Shown: in pieces, positions 1,151-51,903 of the stretch
Position numbering within the stretch: the stretch's first letter is position 1
How the letters are laid out: every line of letters begins with the position of its first letter
Source of the DNA: Anaerolineales bacterium
GTDB taxonomy: Bacteria > Chloroflexota > Anaerolineae > Anaerolineales > DRMV01
DNA: 51,903 nucleotides
NCBI GenBank assembly: GCA_027053355.1
Contig: JALUDX010000059.1
Span: 1 to 51,903, forward strand
Reading direction: 5' to 3'
Translations under genes and position numbers: made by a program
The notes under the pieces: generated by a model
The model's input: the letters and a program-made list of their open reading frames with translations, nothing else
What the model was told of the DNA's origin: nothing
Database searches by the model: none

Positions 1151-1450
1151 GAACAACCTCCTTGGAACAAAAGTTCGGAGCGGCGAAAGGCAACCGCCGC
1201 GCCGTGATGGTCGTGCTTCCATTGTATAACAACTTTAGCCAACACAGGGGGAGCAAGGACGGTAACTTTCAGGGCGGGCAGACAGAAAGGGGAAGCGGGA
1301 TGCGTGAGGCGGGGCGCCTCCCTTGCTTGACGCCCTTAGCGCCACTTTGCGTCCAAAAATCAGCATCTATCCGCCATCATCCGCGTTCATCCGTGGGCTG
1401 TTTTCCAAAGACTGAACAGTTACTGTTGCGGGGGGATGGGGGAATTCCCC

Positions 1451-6618: not shown

Positions 6619-6631
6619 CCCGCGCCGGTGG

Positions 6632-7043
6632 AACTGTTCAGCCTTGGAGGAAACCACAGATTACGCAGATTACGCAGATTTCGCAGAGAGACATCCACAG
6701 AGATTTCATGGGTTGGCACAGATGGGGTAAAAAAACACCCCAAAGCGCCACGTTTCCCTTCGTTTCTTGGCGCCCTTTGGGGTCGTCTTGGCGACCTGGT
6801 ATGATTGGCGTTACCATCCACCGATTGACACAGATTTACACCGATTGGGTGAAAAACACAGAAGACACAGAAAACCCGCAGAAAACACAGAAATTTTCTC
6901 TCTGCGTCTTTGGGCGAGGCATCGCCTCGCCCCTACGCTGCGTCTTTGCGTTCCTCTTTGGCGACCTCGGCGTCCTCTTGGCGCCCTTGGCGACTCAAAA
7001 ATCCGTGCTATCCGCGGTCTCTTCCCTCGTGGCTGAACGGTTA
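6632..7043. repeat. Dispersed composite intergenic repeat with imperfect terminal inverted repeats
   Basis: Left end AACTGTTCAGCCTTGG (6632), right end CGTGGCTGAACGGTTA (7028-7043). Internal modules: CACAGATTACGCAGATTACGCAGATT, CTTGGCGACCTCGGCGTCCTCTTGGCGCCCTTGGCGAC, ATCCGTGCTATCCGCGG. Confidence 0.7.
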
Positions 7044-7052
7044 AGCCCCGGT

Positions 7053-17295: not shown

Positions 17296-17487
17296 GTAAC
17301 CGTTCAACCGCGGGGAAGAGAAACCGCAGATTACGCCGGTTTCACAGATGAGCACAGATTGGGCGAAAAACACTAAAAAGCCCTCTCTCTCGCCCTCACT
17401 TCTTGGCGGTCTTGGCGTCATCTTGGCGACCTTGGCGACCTAAAAATCAGTGCTATCCGTGGTCTATTCCCTTGGGTGAATAGTTAC
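17296..17487. repeat. Dispersed composite intergenic repeat, TIR-bounded copy
   Basis: Left GTAACCGTTCAACCGCGGGGAA, right TTCCCTTGGGTGAATAGTTAC; internal CCGCAGATTACGCCGGTTTCACAGATGAGCACAGATT and CTTGGCGGTCTTGGCGTCATCTTGGCGACCTTGGCGACC. Confidence 0.7.
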
Positions 17488-19968: not shown

Positions 19969-20244
19969 ACATTCAAGCCGCCGTTCACCCTCAAGAGACA
20001 CTGCGGAACTGCGGATGACGTAGACAGAAAACCACAGAAGCCACAGAGAAGGCACCGAGAACACAGAAGGCGGGAGGGGTTGGGGTAGTAAATGGCGCTT
20101 GGTTACTTGGTGCTTGGTTACTCAGGCGCCTCACCCGGTGCCCTCGGCGCCCTAAAATCCGCGTCCATCCACCAACATCCGCGTTCATCCGTGGGCTGTT
20201 TCCCAAAGGCTGAACAGTTACACATTCAAGTCGCCGTTCACCCT
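19969..20244. repeat. Dispersed composite repeat flanked by 23-bp near-perfect direct repeats
   Basis: ACATTCAAGCCGCCGTTCACCCT at 19969-19991 and ACATTCAAGTCGCCGTTCACCCT at 20222-20244 (1 mismatch); between them CCACAGAAGCCACAGAG, GCTTGGTTACTTGGTGCTTGGTTAC, ATCCGCGTTCATCCGTGGGCTGTTTCCCAAAGGCTGAACAGTTAC. Confidence 0.7.
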
Positions 20245-26118: not shown

Positions 26119-26229
26119 AATGGCCACCCACCCCGCGGCATAGGGTACAATGTTGAAAACAGCCGTCTATTCAGCCACAAGGAAATCGACCACGGAGGAC
26201 ACGGACAACCACAGATACGCACGGCTTTT

Positions 26230-26278
26230 CAAGTCGCCAAGAGAGGCAACCAAGCAACCAAGTAACCAGGTCACCAAG
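26230..26278. repeat. Dispersed repeat (CAACCAAG module) in the 5' leader of the histidine kinase
   Basis: CAAGTCGCCAAGAGAGGCAACCAAGCAACCAAGTAACCAGGTCACCAAG, ending 17 nt before the ATG; extends upstream with CAGCCACAAGGAAATCGACCACGGAGGACACGGACAACCACAG. Confidence 0.7.
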
Positions 26279-26295
26279 CCCCCCAGGACACCCCC

Positions 26296-27807
26296 ATGCC
26301 CTTGCCCACGCCCAACTTCCGCCGCCTGCAGTGGAAACTCACCCTTTCGTACACCTTAGTGACCACCGCGGCCATCTTGCTCATCGAACTGGCCGCCCTG
26401 GTTTTTGCCGCCATACTCATGCAGCGAGCGCCTCTGCTACCCACGCTGATCGTCTCTTCCCTCAAAAGCGGCGCTTCACCGCTGGCCGACGCCTTGGCCG
26501 CCCAGCCCCCCGACCAGCAGAGAGCCGAGCGATGGCTGGCCGAGTTCGTGCGCTACGGCACCCTGACCACCAACCACGGCAGCCTGAAAATGCACATCGA
26601 CCCCGCGAGCATCACCCAGGCCGTGGTGGTCGACGCCCAAGCGCACGTGGTGGCCGCCTACCCACCGGCCGCGTGCGGGGCCAGCCTGGCCGCGTGCCTG
26701 CCTGCGGAAGGGGAGCACCTGCTGGCGCGCGCCCTGGCCGGAGAAAGCACCCCCGACCGCCTGGCCGAGCAAACCGAGCACGGCTTCCTCATGGCCGTGC
26801 CCATCACCCAGCCCACCAGCGGCAAAGTGGTAGGCGCCTTGTTTTTGCGGGTGACCCTGCCCTTCACCTGGGCGCAGGCGCCCAAAGTGTTCCTGCTGCC
26901 GGTGGCGCGCAGCGCGTTGGTCATTCTGCTCATCGCGGCCGTCATCGGCACCGTGTTTGGCTTCCTCACCGCCCGCAGCCTCACCCACCGGCTCAAGCGG
27001 CTGGCCACAGCCGCAGACGCATGGAGCCAGGGCGACTTCAGCGTGTTGGCCCGCGACACTTCCCAAGACGAAATCGGCGACCTAGCCCGGCGCCTCAACC
27101 AAATGGCCTCCCAACTGGAAAACCTGCTCCACACCCGGCAAGAACTGGCCGCGGTCGAAGAACGCAACCGCCTGGCGCGCGAACTGCACGACGCGGTCAA
27201 ACAACAGGTCTTCGCCGCGGGGATGCAAATCGCGGCCGCACGGCGTCATCTCCCCGCGCACCCTGAGCAGGCCCAGCAGGCCCTGGCGCAAGCGCAGCGC
27301 CTCACCCAACTAGCCCAGCAGGAACTCACCGCGCTGATCCGGGAACTGCGGCCTGCCGCGTTGAAAGACCAGGGGCTGGCCGCCGCGCTGCGCGACGCCC
27401 TCCACCGCTGGCAAGAACAGACCGGCATCCAGGCCACCCTGCACCTGCAGGGCGAGCGCCGCCTTCCCTTGGCCGTGGAGCAGACCCTCTTCCGCATTGC
27501 TCAAGAGGCGTTGAGCAACGCGGCCAAACACAGCCAGAGCACCCACGTCACCCTGCGGGTGGTCTGGGCCGCCGACCACGTGACACTCATCGTGGAAGAC
27601 AACGGCCAGGGCTTCGACCCCGCGCGCGCCCGCGGGCGCGGGCTGGGGCTTTCGAGCATGGCCGAACGCGCGGCCGAACTGGGCGGCCACGTGCACATCC
27701 ACAGCGCGCCCGGCCAGGGCACCCGCATCGAAGCCCGCCTTCCCCTTCCCCCGCCTGCAGGGGCCAAAAGCCACCCTGAGCCAGGGGATCGTTCGGCCTT
27801 GGGGTAG
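26296..27807 (+). CDS. Sensor histidine kinase, NarL/HisKA_3 type with HAMP
   Basis: RLARELHDAVKQQVFAAGMQIAAARRHL; LFRIAQEALSNAAKHSQSTHVTLRV; VEDNGQGFDPARARGRGLGLSSMAERAAELGG. Confidence 0.93.
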   Translation: MPLPTPNFRRLQWKLTLSYTLVTTAAILLIELAALVFAAILMQRAPLLPTLIVSSLKSGASPLADALAAQPPDQQRAERWLAEFVRYGTLTTNHGSLKMHIDPASITQAVVVDAQAHVVAAYPPAACGASLAACLPAEGEHLLARALAGESTPDRLAEQTEHGFLMAVPITQPTSGKVVGALFLRVTLPFTWAQAPKVFLLPVARSALVILLIAAVIGTVFGFLTARSLTHRLKRLATAADAWSQGDFSVLARDTSQDEIGDLARRLNQMASQLENLLHTRQELAAVEERNRLARELHDAVKQQVFAAGMQIAAARRHLPAHPEQAQQALAQAQRLTQLAQQELTALIRELRPAALKDQGLAAALRDALHRWQEQTGIQATLHLQGERRLPLAVEQTLFRIAQEALSNAAKHSQSTHVTLRVVWAADHVTLIVEDNGQGFDPARARGRGLGLSSMAERAAELGGHVHIHSAPGQGTRIEARLPLPPPAGAKSHPEPGDRSALG

Positions 27808-27931
27808 GCCGCGGATGAACGCGGGGACGAATGCAAATTACGAGTTGCGAATTAGGCCGTAGATTTTGGAGATGCCAAGGTCGCCAAGAGAGGCAACTAA
27901 GCAACCAGGTAACCAAGTCACCACTGTCCTT
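27781..27931. repeat. Dispersed repeat copy in the 5' leader of the response regulator
   Basis: GGGGATCGTTCGGCCTTGGGGTAGGCCGCGGATGAACGCGGGGACGAATG...CAAGGTCGCCAAGAGAGGCAACTAAGCAACCAGGTAACCAAGTCACC. Confidence 0.7.
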
Positions 27932-35110: not shown

Positions 35111-35205
35111 GTTGTTGCCTCCAGGGGACGGGGAAAGCAGGGGAAGTCGCAGAAGGGTTGTTTGGTGACTTGGTTACCTGGTTGCTGTGTTACGCCTGCC
35201 GTCGG

Positions 35206-38028: not shown

Positions 38029-38101
38029 CGCCCTCGGCGTGATTCGAACACGCGACCCCTTGCTCCGCAAGCAAGTGCTCTCTCCACTGAGCTACGAGGG
38101 C
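38029..38101 (-). tRNA. tRNA-Arg (anticodon GCG)
   Basis: GCCCTCGTAGCTCAGTGGAGAGAGCACTTGCTTGCGGAGCAAGGGGTCGCGTGTTCGAATCACGCCGAGGGCG; full cloverleaf, 73 nt, A20 and C35 Arg identity positions, no encoded CCA. Confidence 0.93.
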
Positions 38102-38113
38102 GTAAGGCACAGG

Positions 38114-38205
38114 CGGGGAGGGCGGGATTCGAACCCGCGGTGGAGGTTTTAGCCCCCACAACCGCTTAGCAGGCGGCCCCGATCGTCCAACTCCGGCACC
38201 TCCCC
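38114..38205 (-). tRNA. tRNA-Ser (anticodon GCT)
   Basis: GGGGAGGTGCCGGAGTTGGACGATCGGGGCCGCCTGCTAAGCGGTTGTGGGGGCTAAAACCTCCACCGCGGGTTCGAATCCCGCCCTCCCCG; long variable arm. Confidence 0.93.
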
Positions 38206-38269
38206 GAATGATGTGGGTGCTGCTCGCCCCTGGGGAGGATGGGTACCCTGGGGGCTTCCCGCCCGTGGG

Positions 38270-38360
<91 letters not shown>

Positions 38361-38397
38361 CGGAGCGGAGAAATTTTACCACAACGGTCAACCGGAG

Positions 38398-38431
38398 GCA
38401 AGAAAACGAGAACCCGCGTGCGCGGGCCTCT
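38398..38431 (-). terminator. Terminator-like hairpin between tRNA-Gly and tRNA-Ser(TGA)
   Basis: Minus strand GAGAGGCCCGCGCACGCGGGTTCTCGTTTTCTTG: GC stem followed by a T-rich tract. Confidence 0.55.
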
Positions 38432-38434
38432 CTG

Positions 38435-38506
38435 AGCGGGCGACGGGATTCGAACCCGCGAATGGTAGCTTGGGAAGCTACTGCCTTACCACTTGGCGAC
38501 GCCCGC
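38435..38506 (-). tRNA. tRNA-Gly (anticodon CCC)
   Basis: GCGGGCGTCGCCAAGTGGTAAGGCAGTAGCTTCCCAAGCTACCATTCGCGGGTTCGAATCCCGTCGCCCGCT; cloverleaf with loop TTCCCAA. Confidence 0.94.
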
Positions 38507-41352: not shown

Positions 41353-41390
41353 GGAACACCTCCAAAATGGTTGAGATTTGGGTAACCGTT

Positions 41391-41456
41391 CAGCCTTGGG
41401 AAAATAGGCCACGGATGAACGCGGATAATTACGGATCGCCGCGGATTTGAGAGCGT
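41391..41456. repeat. Dispersed repeat copy between T-box and trpB start
   Basis: GTAACCGTTCAGCCTTGGGAAAATAGGCCACGGATGAACGCGGATAATTACGGATCGCCGCGGATTTGAGAG. Confidence 0.75.
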
Positions 41457-41545
41457 CGTAGGGCGGGATGCCAATACAGCGCAGCCCAAGGGAGGCGAGA
41501 CAGTGTGCCGCCAACAAACGCGCGCAACGCAAAGCGCGCTTAACG

Positions 41546-41901
41546 CAAAACGCGCCCGTCCCGCTCAGGGACGAACGCGTCGAAGGCGTCCGCGGTGCCA
41601 CCCCGGTTAGGCTGGCCGCGGGTTTAAAACAAAAAAACCCGCCGTGAAGCGACGGGAAAATCCGCAAGCCACTGGCAAGCCAGCCTCACTCTTTTCGGGT
41701 ACGGCGCTGCTGCGCTTATACCCTTTGCCTCGATAACGGTGGCAACTCCGGCAAGGGCTACTGCCTGAGGGTTCGCCCTGCGGCTCCGAGGCCCATTCAG
41801 CGTCGGCGTGCGGGCCGGCTCTCACCTTCCCCGGCTCTCTGTGCCGTCGTTTCGGCGCTTACTCGTCCTCTTCATCGCCTTTGCGCGCTGTGCGGTTGTT
41901 G
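41546..41901 (-). promoter_or_regulatory. T-box riboswitch leader, Trp (UGG) specifier predicted, with intrinsic terminator
   Basis: Minus strand GGCGATGAAGAGGACGAGTA; AGAGAGCCGGGGAAGGTGAGAGCCGGC; CTGAATGGGCCTCGGAG (specifier TGG at 41793-41795); T-box GGGGTGGCACCGCGG (41590-41604); 13-bp terminator stem ACGCGTTCGTCCC-TGAGC-GGGACGGGCGCGT-TTT (41546-41580). Confidence 0.9.
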
Positions 41902-49110: not shown

Positions 49111-49380
49111 GTAACTGTTCAGCCTTGGGAAAATAGCCCACGGACGAACGCGGGGATGATGGCGGATAGCCGCGGATTTTTGGGCACCGAGGGCACCAGG
49201 AGAAGCGCCTGAGTAACCAACCACCAAGCAACCAAGCAACCAAGCAACCAGGTAACCAGGCAACCAACCCCCATTTACCCCAATCCCTCAGTACCTCAAC
49301 CCCTCTCGCTTTCTGTGTTTTCAATGCCTTCTCTGTGTCTTCTGTGGTTTTCTGTCGGCGACATCTTGTTGAGCAGTTAC
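49111..49380. repeat. TIR-bounded copy of the dispersed composite repeat (270 bp)
   Basis: Left GTAACTGTTCAGCCTTGGGAAAATAGCCCACGGACGAACGCGGGG; right CTTGTTGAGCAGTTAC; internal AACCAACCACCAAGCAACCAAGCAACCAAGCAACCAGGTAACCAGGCAACC and CTCTGTGTCTTCTGTGG. Confidence 0.75.
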
Positions 49381-49985
49381 CCTCGGCCTAAGGCGCGCAG
49401 CAAGGTGAGCACCATGCGCGCGGTCGCGCCCCAGATGACTTCCCCCTGATAGGGTTGGAAAAAGACGGCCTGCACCGGCGGCAGGTGCGGCAAGACCACG
49501 CGCGGCCGGGTTTGCCGATGCGCGGGGTCGGCCAGCCAGGCCAAGGGCACGGTAAACACCCGCGCCACTTCGGCCGGTGAAGGGTTTAGGGCCAGGGGCT
49601 GGGGCAGCAGCGCGACCACCGGCGCCACCCAAAAATTGCTGGCGGTACGGTGGAGCGGCAGGCTGCCCAACACGGTAACCTGTTCTGCCGGCAGGCCCAG
49701 TTCCTCTTCTGTTTCGCGCAGCGCAGTGTGGACGAGGGAAGGGTCGTCGGGTTCGGCCTGCCCGCCGGGGAAAGACACTTCCCCGCTGTGGGGGTCGTGG
49801 TCGTTGACGGTGCGGCGGATGAACAGCAGGTGCCAGCCCTCGGGTTGAGGCAACAACGGCAGCAGCACCCCCGCGTGGCGCAGCCGGCCGGGCAGGTGCT
49901 CTTCGGGGTAAGGGTTCACCGCCTGAGGGGGAAAGGCCTCCAGGCGGCGGCGGATTTCTTCGGGTGTAAGTTGCGTTGGGTTCAT
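49377..49985 (-). CDS. NUDIX hydrolase (CoA pyrophosphatase-like)
   Basis: RLRHAGVLLPLLPQPEGWHLLFIRRTVNDHDPHSGEVSFPGGQAEPDDPSLVHTALRETEEELGLPAEQVTVLG (Nudix box). Confidence 0.93.
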   Translation of the reverse strand: MNPTQLTPEEIRRRLEAFPPQAVNPYPEEHLPGRLRHAGVLLPLLPQPEGWHLLFIRRTVNDHDPHSGEVSFPGGQAEPDDPSLVHTALRETEEELGLPAEQVTVLGSLPLHRTASNFWVAPVVALLPQPLALNPSPAEVARVFTVPLAWLADPAHRQTRPRVVLPHLPPVQAVFFQPYQGEVIWGATARMVLTLLRALGRG

Positions 49986-50821
49986 GGCTGAGACGAAGGG
50001 GGGACGGCAGTTTCCTGTTCCGCAGGTGGAGGCGCGGGCACCACTGGCCGGGCGAAAATCAGGTAGCCGGTGTGCGCGACCATGCGGTCGGTGGGGCGTA
50101 GCCGTTCGGGGACGGGTTTGTAGTAGCGGAGCAGCACTTCGCACACCTCGATGAACGCGAAGTGGTGCTCTTGCAGCGCGACCACCAGCCGGGAGACCTG
50201 GTTGGTGGTGGGTACCAGGCTGCCGAAAAAGCCGCCGGTTTTGAGCGCGGCCCGCGCCTGCGCGATGTAATCTTCGGGGTTGGGGACATCTAAAAACAGC
50301 GCGTCGACGTCGGTTTCGTCGAAGCCCAAGGCAATGTCGCGCAGTTTGAAGGTGACCCGGTCGTCGAGCCCGACCCGGCGGAGGTTTTTTCGAGCCAGGC
50401 GTTGCATTTCGCCGCGGCGCTCGTAAGAAATCACCCGCCCCTGGGGCCCCACGGCAAAGGCCAACGCGGTGGTCAGTGCGCCCGAGCCCGTGCCCGCCTC
50501 TAACACCGTCTGGCCGGGGCCGATGCTCAGCGAAACCAACACGAAACCGATGTCTTTGGGGAACATGATCTGCGTGTTGCGCCGGGTTTCTTTGAGTAGG
50601 TCGGCCAGCGAGGGGCGCAGCAGGTAAAACGACGCGCCCAAATGCGAATACACCTGGCTGCCCCACGGCAGGCCGATGAGGTCGTTGTGCTGGATGACGC
50701 CTTTGTGGGTGTGCAGCACGGCGTCTGGGGTCAGCCGCACCAAGAAAAAGCGGTGGCTGGTGCTCAGCAGTTGCACCAGATCGCCTGGCCGGGCATGGGT
50801 GTGGTAGAGAGGGAGGGTCAT
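49982..50821 (-). CDS. trmI: tRNA (adenine-N1)-methyltransferase, TrmI family
   Basis: KGVIQHNDLIGLPWGSQVYSHLGASFYLLRPSLADLLKETRRNTQIMFPKDIGFVLVSLSIGPGQTVLEAGTGSGALTTALAFAVGPQGRVISYERR. Confidence 0.92.
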   Translation of the reverse strand: MTLPLYHTHARPGDLVQLLSTSHRFFLVRLTPDAVLHTHKGVIQHNDLIGLPWGSQVYSHLGASFYLLRPSLADLLKETRRNTQIMFPKDIGFVLVSLSIGPGQTVLEAGTGSGALTTALAFAVGPQGRVISYERRGEMQRLARKNLRRVGLDDRVTFKLRDIALGFDETDVDALFLDVPNPEDYIAQARAALKTGGFFGSLVPTTNQVSRLVVALQEHHFAFIEVCEVLLRYYKPVPERLRPTDRMVAHTGYLIFARPVVPAPPPAEQETAVPPSSQP

Positions 50822-50827
50822 GGGAGG

Positions 50828-50965
50828 AGGGAGGATGGTTGGATGGTTACCTGGTTGGTTGGTTGGCTGGTTGGTTGGATGGTTGGATGGTTGGTTGCCT
50901 CGCTTGGCGGCCTCGGCGTTCCGAAATCCGCGGGCATCTGTGGCGCTTCGCGCCATCCGCGGCCG
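50828..50965. repeat. Dispersed repeat copy rich in GGTTGGTT
   Basis: GGAGGATGGTTGGATGGTTACCTGGTTGGTTGGTTGGCTGGTTGGTTGGATGGTTGGATGGTTGGTTGCCTCGCTTGGCGGCCTCGGCGTTCCGAAATCCGCGGGCATCTG. Confidence 0.75.
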
Positions 50966-50971
50966 ATTTTT

Positions 50972-51903
50972 CTACGGCTTTACGCTTTGTTCGATGTGGC
51001 GGAGGATTTCCGCTGCTTCCGCGGGAGCCGCGTAGTGCACGGTGCCGTCGCCGTCGATGTGCACCGGCACGTACTCGTAGCGGATGAGATGGCGACCCTG
51101 GAAGGTGAGCACAAGTATAGCACCTTGTTGGGTTTCTGGCGACCATGTTTGGTCGAATACGAAATTGCCCAGGCCGTAGAACACCGGCACCCCCTGGAGC
51201 ACGGTGTGCCCCTGCACCACGTGGGGGTGGTTGCCCACGATGACGTCCGCGCCGGCTTCGACCAACAGCCGCGCCGCCCGCCGCTGCAGATAGTTGGGCG
51301 CGAAGTCGTACTCAGGCCCCCAATGGGGCAGGGCAATGACCACGTCGGCCTGCTGATGCGCGGCGGCGATGGCCTGACGCGCGGTCGTGGGGGTGAGGGG
51401 CGCCGCGCCGGGGCGCTCTTTTGTGGCAAAGGAATGCGGCTCGATGGCGTTGAGGGAGACAAAAGCAAAGCGCACGCCGTGGAGGGTGACCACCAGGGGT
51501 TGCAGCGCGGCTTCCAGGTTTTCGCCACCGCCCACCGTCGGCAGCCCCGCCTGATGGATGGCTTGCAGGGTATCTAAGAAAGCCCGGTCGCCGCCGTTTT
51601 TGATGTGGTTGGTGCCGACGTTGACCGCGTCGAAGCCGGCCCAGGCCATGGTTTGGGCGTGCCGCGGGTCGCCCAGCAGCAAGTAGGTATGCACGCAGCC
51701 CGTGGGGGGGAAGCGGTCGGTCAGCGCGGTGTTGAGCAGCGCCATGGCGTAATCGGCCTGACGGATGCGGGGGGCTACTTCGGCGTAGATGCTGCGGTCT
51801 TCGCCGCGGCGGTCGGCTGCGGCGCGCACACAGCGCGCGGGCACGATGTTTCCCACGAAGAGCAGGGTGGTCAGTGCGGGCGTGGGGGTGGGCGACGGGG
51901 TGG
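50972..51903 (-). CDS. CapA-family metallophosphatase-like protein with PT linker (5' end runs off the window)
   Basis: PTPSPTPTPALTTLLFVGNIVPARCVRAAADRRGEDRSIYAEVAPRIRQADYAMALLN...VNVGTNHIKNGGDRAFLDT...VVIALPHWGPEYDFAPN...GADVIVGNHPHVVQGHTVLQGVPVFYGLGNFVFDQ. Confidence 0.88.
   Translation of the reverse strand, partial: TPSPTPTPALTTLLFVGNIVPARCVRAAADRRGEDRSIYAEVAPRIRQADYAMALLNTALTDRFPPTGCVHTYLLLGDPRHAQTMAWAGFDAVNVGTNHIKNGGDRAFLDTLQAIHQAGLPTVGGGENLEAALQPLVVTLHGVRFAFVSLNAIEPHSFATKERPGAAPLTPTTARQAIAAAHQQADVVIALPHWGPEYDFAPNYLQRRAARLLVEAGADVIVGNHPHVVQGHTVLQGVPVFYGLGNFVFDQTWSPETQQGAILVLTFQGRHLIRYEYVPVHIDGDGTVHYAAPAEAAEILRHIEQSVKP

What the first reader, a model, noticed from the sequence alone, without database searches (positions are those of the whole stretch)
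6632..7043. MITE-like modular dispersed repeat family with GTAACnGTTCAGCC inverted ends
Clearly related sequences recur at about 1311-1425, 6632-7043, 17296-17487, 19969-20244, 26230-26278, 27781-27931, 35149-35192, 41391-41456, 49111-49380 and 50828-50965. The best copies (6632-7043, 17296-17487, 49111-49380) begin with GTAACnGTTCAgCC(TTGGG) and end with its inverted complement. Interiors are built from quasi-periodic modules in variable number: CACAGATTACGCAGATT (9-nt period), CTTGGCGACCTTGGCGAC, ATCCGCGTTCATCCGTGG, AAGCAACCAAGCAACC / GGTTGGTT, and CACAGAAGACACAGAA. Terminal inverted repeats plus internal low-complexity modules look like a non-autonomous mobile element that expands by slippage. 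I know such words are common in environmental genomes but not of a described mechanism.
Basis: partly seen in the sequence, partly recalled or inferred. Interest (0 to 1): 0.72.

Follow-up and report, generated by a model that had tools for sequence, protein, structure and literature searches.

The report
IS66-type miniature transposons, modular interiors
The repeats are a real family of roughly two hundred tiny gene-less transposons whose ends and 8-base target duplications match the IS66 (ISBst12) insertion-sequence family; unusually, they are filled with short 9-base repeated words that also turn up, for unknown reasons, in bacteria of many unrelated phyla.

Summary
The inverted end GTAACNGTTCAGCC (up to 1 mismatch) occurs 399 times in the 2.45-Mb genome, against 3 for the reversed control. 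Of 84 paired ends, 25 are flanked by an exact 8-bp target duplication (chance 0.4); no other length is enriched. One nested copy gives a clean empty site: removing it plus one duplication restores a 184-bp element that aligns without a gap to another copy.

The ends match IS66-family elements of the ISBst12 group. Same-order genomes carry IS66 transposases inside nearly the same ends with 8-bp duplications, and the published, transposing ISDge4 has GTAACTGCTCAGCA. No such transposase was found in this assembly, so the family may be orphaned.

Module slippage is supported: copies 94-97% identical differ by 9-nt indels. In the window only four of the ten listed copies have both ends; the rest are one-ended, decayed or fragments.

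The odd part is the interior. CACAGATTACGCAGATTACGCAGA is found exactly in at least 100 stretches from many phyla (chance about 0.002), about half the time as an arm of a small palindrome. Why it is shared is unresolved. I rate this a new variant of a known kind.

The parts
6630..7044 (.). two-ended element, 415 bp (GGAACTGTTCAGCC / TTAACCGTTCAGCC)
   Evidence: ends; flanking 8-mers GCGCCGGT / GCCCCGGT, 7 of 8 identical
6622..6629 (.). left copy of the imperfect 8-bp target duplication, GCGCCGGT
7045..7052 (.). right copy of the imperfect 8-bp target duplication, GCCCCGGT
17296..17487 (+). A-type two-ended element, 192 bp
   Evidence: ends; 85% identical over its length to L059:3597-3793; no target duplication left
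19977..20221 (+). B-type element, right end perfect, left end decayed; flanked by ACATTCAA on both sides
49111..49380 (-). B-type two-ended element, 270 bp; flanking 8-mers 6 of 8 identical
41382..41534 (-). one-ended B/C-type copy (perfect GTAACCGTTCAGCC end at 41382-41395)
   Evidence: 84% identical to L062:4465-4671 over 41382-41527
1285..1423 (+). one-ended B-type copy (end at 1410-1423)
   Evidence: 96% identical to L051:4947-5149 over 1349-1423
26167..26279 (-). decayed copy, remnant of an end (CTATTCAGCCACAAGG)
27781..27931 (.). decayed copy, remnant of an end (GATCGTTCGGCCTTGGGG) plus modules
   Evidence: shares a 44-nt module block (93%) with 26233-26276; not recovered by BLAST at 1e-6
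35149..35192 (.). module fragment (GGTTACCTGGTTGCT), no ends
   Evidence: not recovered
50852..50972 (+). module fragment, no ends
   Evidence: 80% identical to part of L069:2772-2986

Best explanation
[quoted passage not shown] They were moved in trans by an IS66-family transposase of the ISBst12 (single-ORF) group, which recognises the roughly 14-bp ends GTAACNGTTCAGCC and whose insertion leaves 8-bp target duplications. The interiors show no coding content and consist largely of 9- and 10-nt words in tandem that gain and lose units by slippage or unequal recombination, so copies drift in length. The transposase is missing from the available assembly, so the family is probably orphaned, or its helper element was lost or not assembled. 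Shown: ends, duplications, one empty site, copy number, indels of one word. Inferred: the identity of the transposase, its action in trans, present inactivity.
For: 399 ends against 3 control; 25 of 84 pairs with exact 8-bp duplications against 0.44 by chance, no other length enriched; a nested copy whose removal with one GCGTGTTC restores a 184-bp element aligning without a gap to L039:10443-10626; copy number 143, 133, 63, 5, 0, 0 in six genomes of the genus; IS66 transposases inside GTAACCGTTCAGTT (L199, duplication CTCAATTT) and GTAACTACTCAGGC (L218, duplication CAAATTTC) ends and inside GTAACTGCTCAGCC/GC ends (L193) in same-order genomes; published ISDge4, ISBst12 group, ends GTAACTGCTCAGCA / GTGACTACTCAGCA with an 8-bp repeat (PMC12898284); 94-97% identical copies differing by 9-nt gaps.
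Against: No IS66 transposase in the own genome and no homologue of the L193 protein (without a positive control). The likeness to IS66 elements covers only about the first 12-14 bp. About half of the end pairs no longer have a recognisable duplication, which fits an old family.
Confidence: 0.88

Rival explanations
1. The same kind of MITE, but mobilised by a transposase of a family other than IS66.
For: No IS66 transposase is present in any of the copy-rich genomes; the shared end is short; other families with 8-bp duplications were not searched for in the own genome.
Against: Several independent IS66 elements, including a published one, share GTAACNNYTCAG ends and 8-bp duplications.
Confidence: 0.08
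2. REP-like palindromes spread by a RAYT (Y1, IS200/IS605-like) transposase, as the reader suggested looking for.
For: Intergenic palindromic repeats are found in many phyla, Chloroflexi among them (PMC3733652).
Against: 8-bp target duplications and elements of 150-300 bp with DDE-type ends; REPs are 20-40 bp (PMC3733652).
Confidence: 0.02
3. Not a transposon: low-complexity sequence that expanded by slippage at scattered places and only looks like a family.
For: The interiors are quasi-periodic and vary by whole words; several window copies lack ends; the AACC module can match by chance.
Against: Target duplications, empty site, constant ends, copy-number differences within the genus.
Confidence: 0.01

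Closest known systems
IS66 family, ISBst12 group, for example ISDge4 of Deinococcus geothermalis (PMC12898284)
   Same: End sequence (GTAACTGCTCAGCA against GTAACTGTTCAGCC) and 8-bp target duplication
   Different: ISDge4 is autonomous with a 449-aa transposase; these elements have no transposase and an unrelated interior
Bacterial MITEs, for example MITECca01 of Cardinium (169 copies, IS982-derived; PMC9769881)
   Same: Small, non-coding, high copy number, nested in other elements, mobilised in trans
   Different: MITECca01 is thought to come from a defective copy of a parental IS that is still present; here no parent was found and the interior is made of 9-nt words
GTAG/CGTC-tagged REP palindromes (PMC3733652)
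   Same: Dispersed small repeats known from several phyla including Chloroflexi
   Different: REPs are 20-40 bp, tagged by a tetranucleotide and linked to RAYT genes; these elements have long ends and 8-bp duplications

Membership tests
MITE | terminal inverted repeats | tested here: met
   399 ends against 3 control; facing pairs mostly 150-300 bp apart
MITE | target-site duplication of fixed length | tested here: met
   8 bp only: 25 exact of 84 against 0.44 by chance
MITE | small and without a transposase gene | tested here: met
   typical copies 150-300 bp; no longer end pair (520-6000 bp) with a duplication in 630 kb
MITE | mobility: occupied and empty sites | tested here: met
   nested copy with restored host element; G003 orthologue lacks the copy at L036:10751-10947, though not at base resolution
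IS66 family, ISBst12 group (as mobiliser) | GTAA-type ends of matching sequence | tested here: met
   L193, L198, L199, L218; ISDge4
IS66 family, ISBst12 group (as mobiliser) | 8-bp target duplication | tested here: met
IS66 family, ISBst12 group (as mobiliser) | IS66 transposase in the same genome | tested here: not met
   no PF03050 match in G000 and no homologue of the L193 protein; draft assembly, so absence is not proven. Hence the elements are described as mobilised by, not as members of, IS66
REP / RAYT | 20-40 bp palindromes without the target duplications of DDE transposons | tested here: not met
   150-300 bp with 8-bp duplications
REP / RAYT | RAYT gene in the genome | not tested
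   no search was run
Described RNA family | match to an Rfam model | tested here: not met
   only tRNAs and a T-box in the window

The most novel reading that the evidence does not exclude
The 9-nt words inside these MITEs belong to an undescribed repeat superfamily shared across bacterial phyla, often seen as arms of small palindromes (CCACAGATTACGCAGATTACGCAGATT...AATCTGCGTAATCTGTGG), which different transposon ends in different lineages have packaged and amplified; the words would have a function or a way of spreading of their own.
Probability: 0.3. Interest if true: 0.75.

Novelty: new variant of a known kind. Interest (0 to 1): 0.45.

Why it matters
It explains a conspicuous repeat class of this lineage and links it to a named transposase family with a testable prediction. 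It also shows that a 24-nt word shared by many phyla is here cargo inside a transposon, one concrete way such a word can be multiplied. That sharpens the question of why unrelated bacteria share it: horizontal spread, shared selection, or repeated packaging by different transposons.

Tried and rejected
IS66 transposase in the own genome: none. A long autonomous element with the same ends and an 8-bp duplication in 630 kb of own sequence: none. Base-level empty site in a same-genus genome: intergenic flanks too divergent at about 74% identity. Known RNA families over the copies: none. Target duplications at the palindromes of other phyla: no signal, nor at outer GTCACTG ends in genome G381 (5 elements). 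Phage carriage of the word: 2 stretches in the viral collection, so phages are not an obvious vehicle. Exact words in the literature: no paper held; MITEs in Anaerolinea: none held; IS66-type MITEs: none recognised among the titles and abstracts listed, full texts not read for this. A crude ORF-overlap test (19 of 57 elements against 85% ORF coverage) hints that genes are avoided, but is unreliable because the elements themselves contain ORFs.

Full report
What was checked. The window is contig 59 of a 2.45-Mb draft genome (215 contigs, 100% complete). Its taxon was not verified. The end pattern GTAACNGTTCAGCC with up to one mismatch occurs 202 + 197 times in the genome, against 2 + 1 for the pattern read backwards. 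In the window it occurs 9 times with up to two mismatches, against 0.98 in shuffles. I took about 580 kb more of the same genome as stretches chosen because they hold hits and worked on 630 kb in all, so densities there are not genome averages. "Roughly two hundred" elements is my inference from 399 ends.

It is a transposon. Pairs of facing ends lie mostly 150-300 bp apart. Of 84 pairs, 25 have identical 8-mers outside both ends and 42 have 8-mers with at most one mismatch; shuffled flanks give 0.44 and 0.82. No other length is enriched. The clearest proof is a nested copy: element L038:9663-9927 sits inside another between two copies of GCGTGTTC. Taking it out with one GCGTGTTC leaves a 184-bp element that aligns without a gap, end to end, to L039:10443-10626.

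Subfamilies and slippage. Fifty simple elements fall into two main groups. A-type (24 copies) begins like GTAACTGTTCAGCCTTGGCAAGGAGAAACCACAGATTACGCAGATTACGCAGA and ends like ATCCGTGGTCTATTTCCTTGTGGCTGAACAGTTAC. B/C-type (23 copies in two clusters) begins like GTAACTGTTCAGCCTCAAAGAGACACTGCGGATGACGCAGG or GTAACTGTTCAGCGCAAACAAAAGAG and ends like ATCCGCGTTCATCCGTGGGCTGTTTTCCAAAGGCTGAACAGTTAC. The closest A-type pairs, 94-97% identical, often differ by gaps of exactly 9 nt, one word; among pairs over 80% identical, gaps of 9 (211) and 10 (156) outnumber those of 8 (102) and 11 (68). The slippage idea is thus supported for the interior. One A-type copy folds end to end as single-stranded DNA better than shuffles (z -2.9); the B-type window copy does not (z +1.7).

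Which transposase. GTAA ends with 8-bp duplications suggested IS66. Among 151 genomes (own and relatives), 25 have IS66 transposases (PF03050). Several sit inside ends of nearly the same sequence: L199 GTAACCGTTCAGTT/GTAACCGTTCAGTA with duplication CTCAATTT; L218 GTAACTACTCAGGC on both sides with CAAATTTC; L193 GTAACTGCTCAGCC/GTAACTGCTCAGGC around one ORF of 489 aa; L198 GTAACTGCTCAGAC with 7 of 8 matching. An independent published case is ISDge4, assigned to the ISBst12 group, with ends GTGACTACTCAGCA and GTAACTGCTCAGCA and an 8-bp repeat, seen to transpose (PMC12898284). The own genome and the other carriers (G002, G003, G004) show no IS66 transposase, nor any homologue of the L193 protein (which had no positive control). 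The one IS66 in the genus (G001, L189) lacks these ends. Exact end counts in the six genomes of the genus are 143, 133, 63, 5, 0 and 0, so amplification or loss was lineage-specific. That the transposase acted in trans and is now gone is inference; draft assemblies often drop multicopy IS elements.

The window copies. Four have both ends (6630-7044, 17296-17487, 19977-20221, 49111-49380). 41382-41534 and 1285-1423 have one. 26167-26279, 27781-27931, 35149-35192 and 50852-50972 are remnants. The end of 49111-49380 supplies the TAA stop of the neighbouring minus-strand ORF, since the end G-TAA-C contains a stop codon.

The words. Chance expectation in 257 Gb on both strands is about 0.002 (my arithmetic). 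In 53 of 104 matches a reverse-complementary arm follows within 300 bp, so the word is commonly one arm of a small palindrome, usually preceded by ATC. Some genomes have amplified their own version: G381 has 45 copies of CTCANTTTTNTATCCACAGATT (up to two mismatches) against 0 control. In the window's genome, by contrast, 31 of 38 words (up to one mismatch) lie within 45 nt of the transposon end, and several of the other 7 keep the sequence normally found just inside that end. The word is not common everywhere: 6 of 250 other genomes of the phylum have a shorter 17-nt form, one copy each. No paper in the held library contains the six words searched. What the words do, and why so many phyla share them, is not explained by anything found here.

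Verdict. An ordinary mechanism, well supported, with an unusual interior: a MITE with IS66/ISBst12-type ends built from 9-nt words of which at least one is shared across phyla.

Noticed in passing
L039:11186-11426, L040:15001-15241, L052:11381-11621, L038:12579-12795 (own genome): A second MITE family, ends GTAAYTACCTACCC, about 217-241 bp, 8 of 15 end pairs with an exact 8-bp duplication (chance 0.64), so probably also IS66-type; copies are nested in the first family. In the copies inspected it carries CCTTCGACTTCGCTCAG, a word seen 60 times in 630 kb.
   Followed up: partly
L050:18167-18390 (own genome): A third possible insertion, ends GGATGGTTCA...TGAACCATCC, nested in a first-family copy; single case, no duplication seen.
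   Followed up: partly
G381 (genome of L108), loci L236-L265: In another bacterium the same 9-nt words sit inside a larger inverted repeat (GGCTCA-TTTT-TATCCACAGATT, with GTCACTG about 45 nt further out on both sides in some copies); no target duplication found.
   Followed up: partly
window 49377-49380: The TAA inside the element's end serves as stop codon of the minus-strand ORF 49377-50666; the insertion probably altered the gene's 3' end.
   Followed up: partly
window 41382-41884: A T-box leader (41564-41884, minus strand) lies just upstream of the one-ended copy at 41382-41534, so the copy appears to sit between the leader and the gene's start codon.
   Followed up: no
window 38029-38506: Cluster of four tRNA genes on the minus strand.
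   Followed up: no
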